Made by a program: the position numbers and the translations under genes. The notes under the pieces are model-generated. The model was not told where the DNA came from, did no database searches, and worked only from the letters and a program-made list of their open reading frames with translations. From contig MEDJ01000012.1 of assembly GCA_001724025.1 (NCBI GenBank), positions 1 through 64,000 on the forward strand: a stretch of 64,000 bases of DNA, written 5' to 3'. The DNA is from Acidobacteria bacterium SCN 69-37. Its GTDB lineage: Bacteria; Acidobacteriota; Vicinamibacteria; Vicinamibacterales; SCN-69-37. Shown here piece after piece: positions 22,210 through 29,849 of this stretch (positions are counted from its first letter, which is position 1; the number at the start of each line of letters is the position of its first letter).

Positions 22210-22626
22210 TCACACGGCCTCAGCGGGCGGCTGGACCGTCCGGTTGATGAAATCCACGATGGCCTGCATCGGCGTGCCGGGTTGAAAGACGCCCTTCACG
22301 CCCATTGCCTGCAGTTTCGGCACGTCGACGTCGGGGATGATGCCCCCGACGAGCACCGCGACGTGGTCGAGTCCCCGGGTCCGCAATTCGTCCATCAGCC
22401 TGGGACACACGTGCATGTGCGCCCCGCTCAGAATCGAGAGCCCGACGACGTCGGCATCCTCCTGGAGGGCGGTGGCCGCAATCTGCTCGGGCGTCTGTCG
22501 CAGGCCCGTATAGATCACTTCCATCCCCGCGTCACGCAGCGCCCTCGCAATCACCTTGGCGCCCCGATCGTGCCCGTCGAGTCCCGGCTTGGCAATGACC
22601 ACGCGGGTGTTCCGCATCCGCTCCAT
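22210..22626 (-). CDS. Cobalamin-binding domain protein (methylmalonyl-CoA mutase C-terminal type)
   Basis: A stand-alone B12-binding domain of about 138 residues, like the small subunits of acyl-CoA mutases. The cobalamin signature is intact: [22 protein letters not shown] with the axial His, then [14 protein letters not shown] and [11 protein letters not shown]. It carries the lower ligand side of adenosylcobalamin. It lies 107 bases downstream of a large-subunit-like gene, so the two probably act together, although that partner has lost catalytic residues. Start ATG 22626 or 22617. Confidence 0.88.
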
Positions 22627-22733
22627 TCCGCCCGACGTCCATCGCCGGAGTCGCCATTCTATTGCAAGGGACGTACCCCACGCGGTGCCTGCCGCCACGC
22701 GGTCCGAGCCGAGGACCGGGAGGCGTCGATCGG

Positions 22734-24350
22734 TTACGGAACTGTACACGCACCCGCGCGTTGCGCACCCGGCTCGTCCCGATCCGCCTCGTCATCACGG
22801 CCCCAGACGTCCTGCAGTGCCGTGCACATTTCACCGAGGGTGACGTCGGCCCTGGCGCACGCCACGAGCGCGGCCATCGTATTCCCGTGGCCGCGCGCGG
22901 TGGTCTGCAACGCGGCGATGGCGGCCGTGGCCGCGCGGCCGTCACGCGAGCGACGGACAGCCGCCACGCGACCGGCGCGCTCGCGCGCCAGGGCCTGGCC
23001 TGCCCTGCTCGCCTGACCAGCCATGCTGGCGACGACGCGCGAGGAGCCCGTCCCTGGCGGCGGCTCGAGTCGTGCCAGCAGCGCGGCCCGCCCGTCTGCG
23101 GTCGTCACCCCGCCGAGGCGATCGAGCGCGTCGAGATCGGCGCGCGCGCCATCGGCCAGATCCTTCGTCACCTGCTCGACGAACCACGCCCCGCCCAGCG
23201 GATCGGCACAGCCGGCCAGGCCGTTCTCGAAGGCGAGCACCTGCTGCGTGCGCAGGCCGAGCGTGGCGGCCTCGATCGCCGACGCGGCCGCGGCCGCGTC
23301 AGCCGACGTCGCCTGGAGTCCGTCCACGCCGCCAAGTGCGGCCGACAGCGCGCGGTACACCGTGCGCACCAGGTGGTCCGATGGATCAGCGTCGATCCCG
23401 GCATCGGCCATGTGCGCGTGGATCCGCAGCGCCGGTGCCTGATCGGCCGCGACGCCGAAGCGGTCCCGCATCACCCGCGCCCACACGGGCCGGACGGCGC
23501 GGAACCGGGCCAGTTCCTCGAAGACGCCGTCCTCCACGCCGAAGAGGCCCGCCATGCACGCGGCTGCCCGGGTGGCATCGATCCCCGCCGCGACCGCCGC
23601 GTCGATGTACGTCGTCGCCAGCGCCAGCACGTACGACAACTCCTGCGGGACGGTGGCCCCGCGCGCGCGGGTCCGCTGCCCGTTCACGGAAACCGCCGAC
23701 CACTGCGGCACGTGATCGAGACAGAACGCCATCGTGTCGCAGACGAGACGCTGAGCCGGCGCGACCGGAAACAGTCCCCTGTCGCCCAGGATACCGGCGC
23801 CGAGAATATCGTGCTGCAGGGTGCCGCGCAGCGCATCCCAGCGCACCTGCCGGCGCTCGGCTGCGGCCAGCACGAGCGCGAAGAGCATGGGCGCGGGCGC
23901 ATCGACGGCCAGCGACACCGATACCGCGCGCAGATCGATCCCGTCGAACAGTTCGAGCACGTCCGCCGTCGAGGCGAGCGACACGCCAGAGATCCCGACG
24001 TCACCGGCGTTCGGCGTCGCGTCCGGATCGCGGCCGGCACGCGTGGCCTCGTCACCGACGACCCCGAGGCCGGAGGCTCCGGCCTCTACCATCTGGCGAT
24101 ACCACACGTTGACGGTCGCGGGGATCCCCGCGCCGCCTGGCGCGTGGACGATCCACTGTCGCGGGGGCTCGTCGGCCAGTCGGCTGTCGCGCGCCCCGCC
24201 ATCGTCGCCGCCGGCGACATTCGCGAGATCGTCGGGGGTGGCGATCACGTCGACGACCCGCCCCGACGGCGTGAGGAATACCGGCGCGCGTTCAGGGGCA
24301 CGCGTGCGTGCCGGCGTCAGGACGCTGGCGGTCCACTCGGCACGGGTCAT
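22734..24350 (-). CDS. Methylmalonyl-CoA mutase large-subunit-like protein, catalytic residues lost
   Basis: A 538-residue protein that aligns across the barrel of methylmalonyl-CoA mutase: [76 protein letters not shown] and the later [14 protein letters not shown]. The Tyr of the GYDSD loop is replaced (AGRDPDA), and the Tyr-His of SGYH reads GQR. The Arg of the RNTYIYP segment is also changed. The N-terminal TIRQYAGF block is missing. This pattern fits a non-catalytic MutA-type subunit. No B12 domain is fused; one lies downstream. Confidence 0.8.
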
Positions 24351-24369
24351 CGACGCACCGCGGGCCTCG

Positions 24370-26403
24370 TCATCCCGTGACACGCAGGGCCACCAGTTGC
24401 TTCACGCGCTCGCCCGCCTGCTCGGCCGCAATCTCGACGAGATACTCGCCGGGGGGGAACGATCCGAGGGCCAGTTCGCTCTCGAAGAGGCCAGGCGACG
24501 CGTTACCGCGCGGCGCGGGTGGCGGCAGCGCGGCCAGTTGATCGCCGTTCTGATTCAGCAGCCGCATGGTCAGGGATGGGGCCGTGCCGCCCGGGCCGTA
24601 GGCTCCGAACCGGATCAACATCCGCTCGGCCCGTCCGAAGACCGCGTTCACGACGGGCGCGGGCGAGGCCGTCTGCCGGATCGCCTGCAGATCGCGCGCG
24701 GTCCGGCCGCGAAACAGGAACGGGGTGGTCAGCTGGGGGCCGGTCGTGGTGAAGTCGGGCACGTCGAATGCGGCCTCGTCCGCGTCGAGCCGCAGGCCGC
24801 GCGCGTTCTCGGGCGTGACGCGCACGCGCAGCGGCCCCGGGGGCGCCTCGAACGTGACGTGCCCGGCCGGTCGGCCCGTCCCCGGTGAGGCCGGCGCGAC
24901 CGTGCCGCTGTAGACCTCGGTGCCGGACAGCGTGGTGGCCACGATCGCCACGCGATCGACCGCGTCCGACGCATCGGTCGGCGCGCCGGATCGCACCTCC
25001 CACGCAAACGTGACCGCCGCGCCCGGCCGCGCCTCCGCGCGCTCGGCGCCCATCCACACCGACACCTGCCGGCTGCGGTTCGCTGTTGCCGACCGCATCG
25101 CATCGAGCGCCGCCGTGACCTCGGCCGGCGATTCGGGCCGCGTCGGGGTCGTCGCGCGCATGACGTCCTCGGCCGTGAAGGCCCAGTAGCCGCGGCGCGC
25201 GCGCACCTCCACGTCCCGCCGGTTCACCCGCACGCGGATCTCGTGGAACTTGCCATCGCGCGGCGACCGCGACGAGGTGTAGCCCAGCAGGTAGTACGCG
25301 CTGCTGTCCTGCACCATCTGCCGCAGGGCCGGCAGCGGATCGTTGCGCCCGACGATCGCGCGACCTTCCGTGCGGTCGGCCATCACGCGCAGCAGATCGG
25401 TCGACTCCCGGAGAATCCGGCGATCGTTCTCGTTCGACACGTCCTCGTCGACACCGAACTCGAAGTTCGCGAGCCCGCGCGGATCGAGCGGATAGAACGA
25501 CACGTTGTTCCGCGTCGCCGCGCGAAACACGCGGGCCTCGAGCTCCGAGAGCAACCCGGCATCCTCGAAGAAATCCTGCGCCTGCGTCCGGGAGTTCTCG
25601 ACGCGCCCGATCGGCTGCGATCCCTGCCAGGAACCGGAGACGCGCACGCCGGACGGCACCGCGCCGCTCATCCCCTCGCTCACGTAGATGATCGCCTTGC
25701 GCCCCTCGCGCAGCGTGCCGAGGTATTCGCTGATGTTCTGCAGCGCCGTCATCGTGAGCGAGTTGCGCAACTGCTCCTGCTGCTCGACGGGCAGCGTCTG
25801 GTAGCGGTACTCGATCGGCGCTTTCGGCGTGTAGTCGTACTTGCGCCCCTCGAACGCCATCACCTCGTTCGAGGTCAGGGCGTGGTTGCGCGAGAAGGTC
25901 ATACCTGCCACACCCGAGAGCGGAGTCGCGATGGCGACGAGATCGTTGCGGGAGAGGCCGCGCAGGAAATCGGCGAGCTGCTGGCGCGACCGCATGCTGT
26001 TGCCGCGCCTGACGTGATAGTCGTCGAGAAAGACGACGAAGAGCCGGTTCTCGAGGCGGGCGGCCTCGCGTCGTTCCTGCTCGAGCGACAGGATCTCGCT
26101 GGCCGCCCCGGGATCGTCGAGGCCGTTCCCCGTCTCCACGAGGCGGAACGAGGTGACCGTCTGCGGATCCCCTTCTTCGCGCACCTCGAAGTCCGCGGCG
26201 GTGAGGTCGCGCACCGGCTGCCCGTTCCTGTCCGTCACGATGACATCGACGCTGACCGCATCGACACCACCACGGAACGTCGGCGGTGCCTCCTGTCCCC
26301 CGTCGTCAGGGCCCTGCGCGGCCGGCCACGCCAGGCACAACGACACGGCCGCCAGCACGAGGCCGACGCGAACGGGACGGAAACGACGCGACACCGGCGG
26401 CAT
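24370..26403 (-). CDS. VWFA-related Acidobacterial domain protein
   Basis: A 677-residue exported protein with an N-terminal signal (hydrophobic run ending near residue 30). Residues 45-400 follow the VWFA-related Acidobacterial domain (TIGR03436): VSVDVIVTDRNGQPVRDLTAADFEV, LFVVFLDDYHV in place of the usual DxSxS site, AIIYVSEGM, and SSAYYLLGYTS with RVRVNRR. The metal-binding DxSxS is not visible, so binding by the MIDAS mode is doubtful. The C-terminal half looks like beta-rich domains. Function unknown. It heads the run that continues into the mutase-like gene, 19 bases downstream. Confidence 0.85.
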   Translation of the reverse strand: MPPVSRRFRPVRVGLVLAAVSLCLAWPAAQGPDDGGQEAPPTFRGGVDAVSVDVIVTDRNGQPVRDLTAADFEVREEGDPQTVTSFRLVETGNGLDDPGAASEILSLEQERREAARLENRLFVVFLDDYHVRRGNSMRSRQQLADFLRGLSRNDLVAIATPLSGVAGMTFSRNHALTSNEVMAFEGRKYDYTPKAPIEYRYQTLPVEQQEQLRNSLTMTALQNISEYLGTLREGRKAIIYVSEGMSGAVPSGVRVSGSWQGSQPIGRVENSRTQAQDFFEDAGLLSELEARVFRAATRNNVSFYPLDPRGLANFEFGVDEDVSNENDRRILRESTDLLRVMADRTEGRAIVGRNDPLPALRQMVQDSSAYYLLGYTSSRSPRDGKFHEIRVRVNRRDVEVRARRGYWAFTAEDVMRATTPTRPESPAEVTAALDAMRSATANRSRQVSVWMGAERAEARPGAAVTFAWEVRSGAPTDASDAVDRVAIVATTLSGTEVYSGTVAPASPGTGRPAGHVTFEAPPGPLRVRVTPENARGLRLDADEAAFDVPDFTTTGPQLTTPFLFRGRTARDLQAIRQTASPAPVVNAVFGRAERMLIRFGAYGPGGTAPSLTMRLLNQNGDQLAALPPPAPRGNASPGLFESELALGSFPPGEYLVEIAAEQAGERVKQLVALRVTG

Positions 26404-26830
26404 GAACACCTGCGACCACACGACTGAACGGGGACGGCGCCATGATACCACCCGGCCTGTGACCGGCGCCGGAGACGACTGGCCTCCGCCCCCGTCACGG
26501 CGTCCAATCCGCGACAACCGAATCCTCCGGCACGCTCCCGGGGCCACGCGCGCCTACGACTGGTCAGGCCAGCCTCCCCTGTCGCAGGAATCCACTCGAG
26601 CGCGTCGAGAGCTCCGTGCGGCCGCCACCGACAGTTCTGTAAGCGGAATACACGGCGGACCGTGCCACGGCGGGCCGCGGGGCCGCCCTCCTTCGCCTCG
26701 CCCGTCGGCCGTCAAATTCCCCCATAGTCGAATAGAGGTACATCATGTTGCGAATACACCTGTAATTCAGCTTCCCATGTCGGCCGGGTTATGTCAGCAT
26801 CAGCGAACTCCCCGCTGCCTGGAGGTTCCT
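26404..26830. other. Intergenic region of 427 bases
   Basis: Between two divergent exported-protein genes, so it must hold both promoters. The sequence becomes A/T-richer from about 26700. I see no gene, no RNA and no strong promoter match. GGAGG at 26821-26825 is the ribosome site of the downstream gene. Confidence 0.6.
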
Positions 26831-29348
26831 ATGCGGTTTCCTGCTGCCAGACGCGCCAGAAAGCTCCTGCTCTTCTTCGGAATCCTCGCCTGCCTTGCCG
26901 TGACATCGCCCGTATCACCGCCGATCATGGCGGCACCAGGGCCCGCCTTGCTTGTGCCGTCCGTCAGTGCCAATGTCCGGCCCCTACCCAACGACAACGG
27001 CTGGAACAACGCCTCGGTCGTGGTCTCGTTCGAATGCGAGGACGCACCCGTCAGTTGCAGCGCGCCGGCGCCAATCGCCAACGAAACGACCGCCTTTGAG
27101 GTCTTCGGCTATGGCAACGACGGCGTCACCGAGGCACAGACGAGCGTGTTCGTCAGTATTGACGTCACGCCGCCCGTCGTGACAATCACGTCTCCGTCGT
27201 CTGGCACCACGAATGCCTCGAGTGCCGCGATCGAGGCCATCGTCTCGGACAGCCGTTCTGGTGTCGATGCGGTCTACTGCAACGGTGAAAGAGGCGACTC
27301 TTGACGATGGCGTGGTTGAATGTACAGTTGATCTCGCCAAAGGCAGGAATGCTGTCATAGTGACCGCCATCGATCGAGCAGGCAATAGCTCCTCCCGATC
27401 GATTCGCCTAACGAGAACAGGCACGCCGTCATCCATTCGGGCAACACCAACGACGCGAATCATGCTGGTCGGCGAGACGCACCTCCTGCGTGTGGTCGAC
27501 GACTTCGGGCAAGCTGTCACCGATGCGACGTGGACGACGGATGCCGACGACGTTGCCGAGATCGGAGTCGTCAACGGGGAGAACCGGGTCGAGGCGACCG
27601 GCATTGGCTCGACCATCTTGACTGCAACGTCAGGCACTCTCACAGCGACCGTTGAAATCACGGTAGTGGCTACCCGCACAACTGGCGATGTCGTGTGGCG
27701 CTCTACGCCCGAGGCTGACGACACATGGTGGCCCCACTACCCACAGTACACAGGCCCCAACGACCCGGCCATTTTCTCATTCGAACAAGATCCGGACGGC
27801 TATGTGATCAAGGCACTCGGGACTCAGGGCACTGAAAGCTGGCGTCAACACATCGGGTGGAACTGGCCACTGATGACCGATACCTTCGGAGGGCTGCTTG
27901 TGAACACATCGACCGGGACACTCCGGCGCATCGCGGGGCCGTCTGGCGTGGCGGATTGGGAATTGACGGCCGGCGCAGACCGATGGGCGCAGAACGCGGA
28001 CGGCGTGCTATTTGGTATCGAAGACAGCCAGACTAGCTCCGACGTGCGTTATGTCATTGGCGTAGACGGCAGTACGGGTCAGGTCATATTCCGGCGTGAA
28101 CTTCCGACAAGCCACTACGCGACCTTCAACAGCGATTGCCATACAGACCGAAACAATGCCGGCGCCATGCGCCCCCAAGTGTCAGATCCCGTGGTTGGCC
28201 AAGGCGGTGCCGCGTATATTCAGGTCGCAACGACTGACTCGACCCAGGATTACTTCCCGTGTGGGATAGGCGCAGTATCGCACACAAGTAATCTGAGGCT
28301 CTTTCGCATCACAGCCACGGGTAGCAGCACGGAGACGACGCTGTGGAATTTCAGTACGAGCGGTCCCGGCGGAACGCCCACCGAGGTTGCCAACCCGGAA
28401 TTCACCCTACCTCTCCCATCAGGCGAAATCGCCACAACGCTGAGGATCAGCGGAACATCGGGCTCGTCACGGGAGACCCTCCTGGTTTCCGGCGGCTCGG
28501 CATCGTCTCTGACAGCCATCGGAGCCATGGTTCCTGTACTCGTGGACAACCATGGGACCATATTCGCCACCGACGGCGGCTCGACGATGAATGCCGTCAA
28601 CGCGGCGGGTCAGGCACTGTGGTCCGACTCCACGGAAGCCATGCCGATTCAGTCCATGGGCGACGGAGGAGTCGTGACCTATGACGGATTGGCCATGACG
28701 GTGTACGACAATCTCGGAAACGCCGCCTCACCAATTCCGCTCGAGATTGAAAGACCCGCTTCGCTGGTGGCGCTTGGACGTTGGACTGGCGTTCAGTACA
28801 ACGAAATCGAAGAACGGTACGATCTCGTGACAGTCGTTGGTCCGGAGGCAATGCGGACTGAATTCGAGTACGCGACTCAAGGCCCACCTGCGCAAAGGCA
28901 CCAGATCAGCCAGTACGACACCGCGGATATCGCTGCTGGCGCGACTCTCCGTTTCTACTTCGATACCTCATACAAACTCGACAAAGAGTTCGGTGGATCA
29001 ATCTGCAAGGTCGATGATCGGTATATCGGCACCGTGCCGGAACAAAGTCCGTACGCTGACACCGTCATAGTCACCCTCTGTGACGTCGGGCAGACACCTG
29101 TCGGTCCGTACCACACACACGGAAAGTGGGGTAACGATGGCATGAGCAGCGCCGACATGCTCTGCGCCAAGGTCGGATGCACGGGGGCTCCACGTCCGCC
29201 CTACGGAGCCGGAAAACCCTGGTGGGTCAGTAACTCCTGCGGCGCTGTTCGCCGATACACTTATCTCGGCACCTGGAACGACGGGGACGATCCGCTCGTT
29301 GCGGGCCCGCATCGCGAGTACGTCACGGTCTACGGTTGCCATCAATGA
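26831..29348 (+). pseudogene. Secreted Ig-like/Big_2 protein with JAMM-like C-terminus, one frameshift
   Basis: The gene starts at ATG 26831 with GGAGG six bases upstream and encodes a signal peptide (LLLFFGILACLAV). The frame stops at TGA 27302-27304. The +1 frame continues the same protein from about 27290 to 29348; skipping one A in the GAAAG at 27287-27291 joins YCNGE to EATLDDG without a gap. Domains: Ig-like repeats to about 28% of the length, a Big_2-type domain (VGETHLLRVVDDFGQ), a beta-rich region with PQQ-like repeats, and a C-terminal domain with HTHG, SSAD and GKPWW. A/T-richer than its neighbours. Total about 838 residues if joined. Confidence 0.75.
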
Positions 29349-29360
29349 GAGGAAACGGGC

Positions 29361-29849
29361 ATGCTCAAATTTGTTCTTGTCGCAGCAAGCCTCGTCGCGT
29401 GGACGATTGTCCCCGTTGTCCAGCAGGTTCGCACGTTCGATGACCTGGAGCATCGAACCGGCTGGATCTTCCTCGGCCTGATCGATGCCACATACGACGA
29501 GCACATGCTCATGTCTGCCCCGGTCGCGGTCGAGGAAACAGCTCCGAGAGAACACCGCTTCAAGCTCGCGAGAGCCGGCTACGTGATCGAGCTCCTTCGG
29601 GACGAGCCGCTGCTCATCCGCGACTACAAGACACGCGGTGAAGAGGAGCGGCTCTGGGCGCCAGTCAGGTATCCGGAAGTCCTGGAGTCCGAGCGCGGTG
29701 CGGACGAAACCGGCATCATTCTGCCGGCAAAGTCCCGTTTTCTCCTGGCTGTCGTCGCCAAGTCCCCGCCCAGTCCGCGCGGAACAATGGGAGTCTTTGG
29801 CCGTCTGGAGCCCGCGCCACCGATTGAATACGCACCTCCGCCGCAGTAG
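29361..29849 (+). CDS. Small exported protein of unknown function next to the Ig/JAMM-like gene
   Basis: A 162-residue protein with a short hydrophobic N-terminus (LKFVLVAASLVAWTIV), then a mixed alpha/beta body (GWIFLGLIDATYDEHML, YVIELLRDEPLLI) and a Pro-rich end. No domain is recognised. It starts 12 bases after the Ig/JAMM-like gene, with GAGG upstream, so the two share a transcript. It might assist or neutralise the large protein; nothing in its sequence proves either. Confidence 0.65.
   Translation: MLKFVLVAASLVAWTIVPVVQQVRTFDDLEHRTGWIFLGLIDATYDEHMLMSAPVAVEETAPREHRFKLARAGYVIELLRDEPLLIRDYKTRGEEERLWAPVRYPEVLESERGADETGIILPAKSRFLLAVVAKSPPSPRGTMGVFGRLEPAPPIEYAPPPQ

What the first reader, a model, noticed from the sequence alone, without database searches (positions are those of the whole stretch)
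29020..29849. JAMM/DUF4329-like C-terminus on a secreted Ig-like protein, followed by a small partner gene
Near its end the protein has HTHG, eight residues, then SSAD, and a GKPWW segment, close to the H-x-H-x7-S-x2-D metal site of JAB/JAMM domains and of DUF4329, which occur in polymorphic toxin systems. A 162-residue exported protein follows after 12 bases. The pair might be an effector and a protective or helper protein. This is the most system-like candidate in the window.
Basis: inference. Interest (0 to 1): 0.6.

Follow-up and report, generated by a model that had tools for sequence, protein, structure and literature searches.

The report
JAB-tipped secreted toxin-like gene pair
A soil-type acidobacterium carries a gene, broken by a frameshift in this assembly, for an exported propeller-shaped protein whose tip is a metal-site (JAB/DUF4329) domain used in bacterial toxins, followed by a small exported partner; relatives in its order keep the same stalk but swap the tip, as in polymorphic toxin systems.

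Summary
Residues encoded at about 28,926-29,345 form a divergent JAB/JAMM domain of the DUF4329 (Tox-JAB-2) type. Pfam gives E 0.001, below its cut-off. The E, HxH, S and D site is complete and invariant against viral DUF4329 relatives. A predicted model (pLDDT 66) matches JAB/MPN structures. A 162-aa protein with a signal or anchor segment starts 12 bases downstream.

The surroundings go further. The stalk (Ig + Big_2 + PQQ-like propeller) is shared by at least eight genes in related Acidobacteriota, which carry five further, mutually unrelated tips: an NSNSF domain (three genomes), three different HExxH zinc-peptidase-like ends, and DUF3238. Each is followed closely by a membrane or exported small gene. 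In one genome two stalks are 94.5% identical in DNA and then end in unrelated tips. This is polymorphic-toxin anatomy on a little-described stalk.

The gene carries a one-base frameshift near 27,280, so here it is either a pseudogene or an assembly error. Toxicity and immunity are inferred, not shown. Verdict: new variant of a known kind.

The parts
26831..27304 (+). Frame A: start codon, Sec-type signal peptide (RRARKLLLFFGILACLAVTS) and the first half of an Ig-like domain
   Evidence: Translation; Pfam Big_7 positions 1-36; BLAST to relatives up to residue ~153
27278..27297 (+). Frameshift: coding switches by one base inside the Ig domain (pseudogene or assembly error)
   Evidence: Relatives such as L027 continue unbroken, residue 777 in frame A and 779 in frame B; third-position GC switches frame; Pfam halves
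27228..29348 (+). Frame B: second half of the Ig domain, Big_2-like domain, propeller stalk, JAB tip, stop codon
   Evidence: Open frame; matched by relatives
27432..27665 (+). Big_2-like Ig domain (conserved start of the stalk family)
   Evidence: Pfam Big_2 E 0.018, below cut-off; over the cut-off in relative L031
27666..28885 (+). PQQ/BamB-like beta-propeller stalk region
   Evidence: Homology to seven other stalks; relative L029 hits PQQ_2 over cut-off
28926..29345 (+). JAB/JAMM tip domain of DUF4329 (Tox-JAB-2) type with six cysteines
   Evidence: Pfam DUF4329 E 0.001, 19.4 bits against a cut-off of 28.6; alignment A8; model pLDDT 65.6, pTM 0.65; fold matches
28986..28988 (+). Predicted catalytic Glu (KEFGG)
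   Evidence: Invariant in A7 and A8
29112..29120 (+). HTH: two predicted metal-binding His
   Evidence: Invariant in A7 and A8
29145..29156 (+). SSAD: predicted Ser and metal-binding Asp
   Evidence: Invariant in A8
29346..29360 (+). Stop codon, then GAGAGGA ribosome-binding-like stretch and spacer before the partner
   Evidence: Sequence
29361..29849 (+). 162-aa partner with N-terminal signal or anchor segment; candidate immunity protein
   Evidence: Translation; one hydrophobic N-terminal segment; no Pfam, NCBIfam, PHROG or PADLOC match

Best explanation
This is a polymorphic-toxin-type effector and partner pair on a Sec-exported Ig + PQQ-like propeller stalk. The intact form would be exported by its signal peptide and shown on or released from the cell by the stalk. 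The C-terminal JAB domain would act as a zinc-dependent hydrolase on a neighbouring cell. The small exported protein encoded just downstream would shield the producer's own envelope from the tip. Shown here: the shared stalk, the swapped tips, the adjacent partner genes, and the complete JAB site and fold prediction. Inferred: zinc binding, toxicity, target, delivery, and immunity by the 162-aa protein. In this assembly the gene is frameshifted between signal peptide and tip, so this copy is either a recent relic or misassembled.
For: DUF4329 match. Complete E/HxH/S/D site, invariant with viral DUF4329 proteins that themselves match Pfam. JAB/MPN fold matches. Stalk relatives with different ends. 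Stalk alignments score z 13-22 against the window for five of seven relatives, while tips score below 1. In G410, two stalks share 638 bp at 94.5% identity and then diverge fully (stalk z 128, tip z 0.1). The NSNSF tip recurs on divergent stalks with related small membrane partners and in phage contigs, again followed by a small membrane gene. An acidobacterial DUF4329 gene is followed by exported Imm-NTF2-2, E 5.8e-16; Imm-NTF2-2 is the partner listed for Tox-JAB-2 (PMC3482391). Low GC3 (0.67-0.77 against 0.88-0.90 in neighbours) fits acquired DNA.
Against: Pfam score below the curated cut-off. No relative of the window's own tip-plus-partner pair was found. The partner is an orphan, so immunity rests on position. 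Only one stalk gene exists in this genome. The frameshift would stop export of the tip. No assay exists for any member. Tip swapping is counted from few genomes, several of them metagenome bins.
Confidence: 0.62

Rival explanations
1. A secreted surface or housekeeping hydrolase: the propeller binds a polymer or envelope protein and the JAB domain trims it; the small downstream gene is an unrelated exported protein or a folding helper, not immunity.
For: Exported single-domain JAB proteins exist without obvious partner genes (L009 in the same phylum, L090 and L091 in viral contigs). The tip has six cysteines, as a stable extracellular enzyme might. No toxicity data.
Against: Tips differ completely between relatives with the same stalk, which is odd for one housekeeping function. 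The small gene changes with the tip. The gene is patchy: same-genus and same-family genomes lack it.
Confidence: 0.2
2. A dead remnant: the frameshift is real, the tip is no longer exported, and only the partner may still be kept, as an orphan immunity gene. (Not exclusive of the main explanation, which concerns the intact family.)
For: The frameshift is well placed by relatives and coding signals. Other family members are also truncated or broken (L028, L029, L071).
Against: The rest of frame B, 706 codons, has no stop, and the tip keeps every site residue, so any break is recent. A single-base assembly error cannot be excluded.
Confidence: 0.35
3. A programmed +1 frameshift joins the two frames: a TGA followed by C ends frame A, with AGAGG upstream, somewhat like the prfB site.
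For: Sequence around 27285-27302.
Against: No relative shows a shift there; all read through in one frame. The codon before the stop is TCT, which would re-pair poorly after a slip. No precedent in such genes is known to me.
Confidence: 0.03

Closest known systems
Tox-JAB-2 / DUF4329 (PF14220) toxin domains of RHS-type polymorphic toxins (Zhang et al. 2012, PMC3482391)
   Same: Same E, HTH, S, D set and order; C-terminal tip of a large secreted protein; small gene just downstream
   Different: Scores below the Pfam cut-off; stalk is Ig + propeller, not RHS; partner is not Imm-NTF2-2; tip has six cysteines and a longer loop after the Asp
Sec-dependent polymorphic toxins with beta-propeller repeats (listed in Table 1 of PMC3482391)
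   Same: Signal peptide, repeat stalk, exchangeable C-terminal domain, downstream partner
   Different: The table names the class only; I found no description of this acidobacterial Ig/Big_2/PQQ-like stalk with JAB, HExxH, NSNSF and DUF3238 tips in the papers searched
Imm-NTF2-2 (PF15631)
   Same: Exported small protein next to an acidobacterial DUF4329 gene (L006) in the same position
   Different: The window's 162-aa partner shows no match to it
JAB/MPN metalloproteases (AF2198, PfJAMM1, AMSH, Cap3)
   Same: Predicted fold and metal-site residues
   Different: Those are intracellular and act on ubiquitin-like or related conjugates; this tip is on an exported-type protein and any substrate is unknown

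Membership tests
DUF4329 / Tox-JAB-2 | Site residues E, H[ST]H, S, D in order | tested here: met
   All five invariant in A8; published signature
DUF4329 / Tox-JAB-2 | Score over the Pfam PF14220 gathering cut-off (28.6 bits) | tested here: not met
   19.4 bits, E 0.001. Some clear viral relatives also fall short, at 17.9, 27.5 and 28.4 bits. So I call it a divergent relative, not a Pfam member
JAB/MPN (JAMM) fold | JAB core fold | tested here: met
   Model pLDDT 65.6, pTM 0.65; nearly all listed PDB matches are JAB/MPN, best E 0.02 and Z 7.8. Moderate scores, and the alignment given to the predictor held DUF4329 relatives
JAB/MPN (JAMM) fold | Zinc binding and hydrolysis | not testable with these tools
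   Needs protein
Polymorphic toxin system | Conserved N-terminal carrier with exchanged C-terminal domains | tested here: met
Polymorphic toxin system | Partner gene immediately downstream, changing with the tip | tested here: met
   for the window's own pair, position only
Polymorphic toxin system | Export signal at the N-terminus | tested here: inconclusive
   Signal peptide present in frame A but cut off from the tip by the frameshift
Polymorphic toxin system | Orphan tip or carrier cassettes downstream | tested here: inconclusive
   Carrier fragments lie downstream of both G410 carriers, but contigs end there; none in the window
Polymorphic toxin system | Toxicity neutralised by the partner | not testable with these tools
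   No assay possible
RHS / CdiA carriers | RHS or filamentous haemagglutinin repeats | tested here: not met
   Pfam finds only Ig-like domains and DUF4329
Imm-NTF2-2 | Match to PF15631 | tested here: not met
   P0002: no family up to E 10

The most novel reading that the evidence does not exclude
Acidobacteriota of this order use a so far undescribed Sec-exported Ig/Big_2/PQQ-propeller stalk as a general carrier for swappable zinc-hydrolase-like and other tips that work outside the cytoplasm. Each tip has its own membrane or exported immunity protein, and at least one tip-partner cassette (NSNSF) is shared with phages.
Probability: 0.4. Interest if true: 0.6.

Novelty: new variant of a known kind. 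Interest (0 to 1): 0.5.

Why it matters
Acidobacteria are abundant soil bacteria whose ways of fighting neighbours are little studied. A stalk family with swappable tips gives a way to find new bacterial toxins and immunity proteins there. Several tips (NSNSF, three HExxH types) match no known domain well, and their partners are membrane or exported proteins, pointing to targets in the cell envelope.

Tried and rejected
Whole-collection scans with the full protein and with the tip found no relatives. Alignments A2 and A3 were too diverse to scan with; A4 found only two loci already known as G285 and G499. The tip folded alone gave a useless model, pLDDT 30, and was discarded. PDB sequence searches of the tip gave nothing or chance. 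NCBIfam, PHROGs and PADLOC gave nothing for the window pair. L003 and L005 were chance matches, as was L089. NSNSF and HEFGH tips have no match in plasmids. A pattern taken from the partner found no relative among the loci held. The programmed frameshift was considered and judged unlikely. Rfam found nothing nearby.

Full report
What is there. The window lies on a 4.43-Mb acidobacterial genome (G000:C12); a genome of the same order is labelled Acidobacteriota (L079, whose contig length of 240,895 equals that of G285 C171). Two genes on the + strand sit between a minus-strand gene upstream (24370-26547) and minus-strand HIT-like and HU-like genes downstream (names are my reading of the translations). 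The first has a signal peptide and half an Ig domain in one frame (26831-27304), then the other half, a Big_2-like domain, a propeller region and a C-terminal tip in another frame (to 29348). The second (29361-29849) encodes 162 residues with an N-terminal hydrophobic segment.

Frameshift. Pfam places Big_7 positions 1-36 at the end of frame A, and Glucodextran_B positions 36-80 at the start of frame B. Relatives read through without a break: L027 matches frame A to residue 777 and frame B from 779; L028 matches to 684 and from 684. Third-position GC changes frame at the same place. So one domain is split by a one-base shift near 27278-27297. I cannot tell a real mutation from an assembly error.

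The tip. DUF4329 is the only Pfam family to match it (E 0.001, 19.4 bits, cut-off 28.6). A DNA pattern for E[FY]GG...YHTH fetched small viral-contig proteins, several with signal peptides, of which six match DUF4329. Aligned with five of these, the window keeps E, G, G, Y, H, T, H, S and D as invariant columns. AlphaFold2 with that six-sequence alignment gave pLDDT 65.6, pTM 0.65. Foldseek's PDB list is dominated by JAB/MPN proteins (Cap3, AF2198, CSN5, PfJAMM1; best E 0.02), as is VIA-align's (Z up to 7.8, rmsd 3.2 over 113 residues). Those scores are moderate, and the alignment contained DUF4329 relatives, so the model supports the family assignment but does not prove it independently. Zhang et al. 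2012 (PMC3482391) describe DUF4329 as Tox-JAB-2 with the signature E, H[ST]H, S, D.

The stalk family. The region 27429-28890 finds relatives in 9 other genomes of the class at E 1e-3 or better, and an alignment profile finds long matches in several more. Their C-terminal ends differ. L030, L031 and L033 carry a ~180-residue domain with an invariant YNSNS motif. L032, L068 and L070 carry three different ends with HEFGH, HELGH and HEALH motifs. L069 carries DUF3238, over its cut-off. In pairwise tests against shuffled sequence, stalks score z 13-22 against the window for five of seven relatives (7.3 and 3.4 for the other two, one of them a fragment), while tips score below 1; only the three NSNSF tips resemble each other (z 22-43). 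In G410 two stalk genes share 638 bp at 94.5% identity and then have nothing in common.

Partners. Each tip-bearing stalk is followed at once, usually by overlap or within a few bases, by a small membrane or exported gene; for the two G410 genes the gap is larger and the choice of partner ORF less certain. The partners of the three NSNSF tips resemble each other (z 4.5-5.3), but one of them also resembles the L069 partner (z 5.8), so part of this may be membrane composition. The NSNSF domain also occurs in three phage contigs as a ~220-residue protein followed by a 112-127-residue membrane protein, just upstream of a 342-386-residue ORF that looks like a phage structural gene. Another acidobacterial DUF4329 gene (L006, with an RHS-like end by my reading) is followed 14 bp later by an exported Imm-NTF2-2 protein (E 5.8e-16), the partner listed for Tox-JAB-2 in PMC3482391. 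The window's partner matches nothing known.

How it most likely works. The pattern of one carrier, many tips and one partner per tip is that of polymorphic toxins. The signal peptide, the membrane or exported partners and the six cysteines of the window tip all point to action outside the cytoplasm. Zhang et al. suggest toxin JAB domains may be nucleases; the exported partner and the peptidase-like sister tips make an envelope hydrolase at least as likely here. How the protein crosses the outer membrane, and what it attacks, are unknown.

Known or new. Tox-JAB-2 tips are known, and 'beta-propeller' is listed among stalk types of Sec-dependent polymorphic toxins (PMC3482391 Table 1). I found no paper describing this acidobacterial stalk family (the library held is partial). 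Hence a new variant of a known kind.

Noticed in passing
L086 4725-5852, L087 3448-4541, L088 4791-5855: NSNSF domain protein and a small multi-TM gene sit together among phage genes, just upstream of a likely phage structural gene, in three IMG/VR contigs; a possible phage-carried toxin and immunity cassette.
   Followed up: partly
L032 (G410:C49) and L068 (G410:C46): Two near-identical stalks with unrelated tips; both contigs end inside stalk copies, suggesting an array of cassettes broken by assembly.
   Followed up: partly
L029 1376-3607 (G191): Stalk gene that ends right after the propeller, with no tip domain and no obvious partner.
   Followed up: no
window 27285-27302: TGA followed by C ends frame A with AGAGG upstream, superficially like the prfB +1 frameshift site; probably chance.
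   Followed up: partly
window 22210-24383, minus strand: Two ORFs whose translations read like a methylmalonyl-CoA-mutase-type large chain and a separate B12-binding chain (by eye, not searched).
   Followed up: no
L070 5976-6848 (G497): Partner gene of the HEALH tip is an exported protein matching TonB_C, exactly at its Pfam cut-off (24.6 bits), unusual for an immunity candidate.
   Followed up: no
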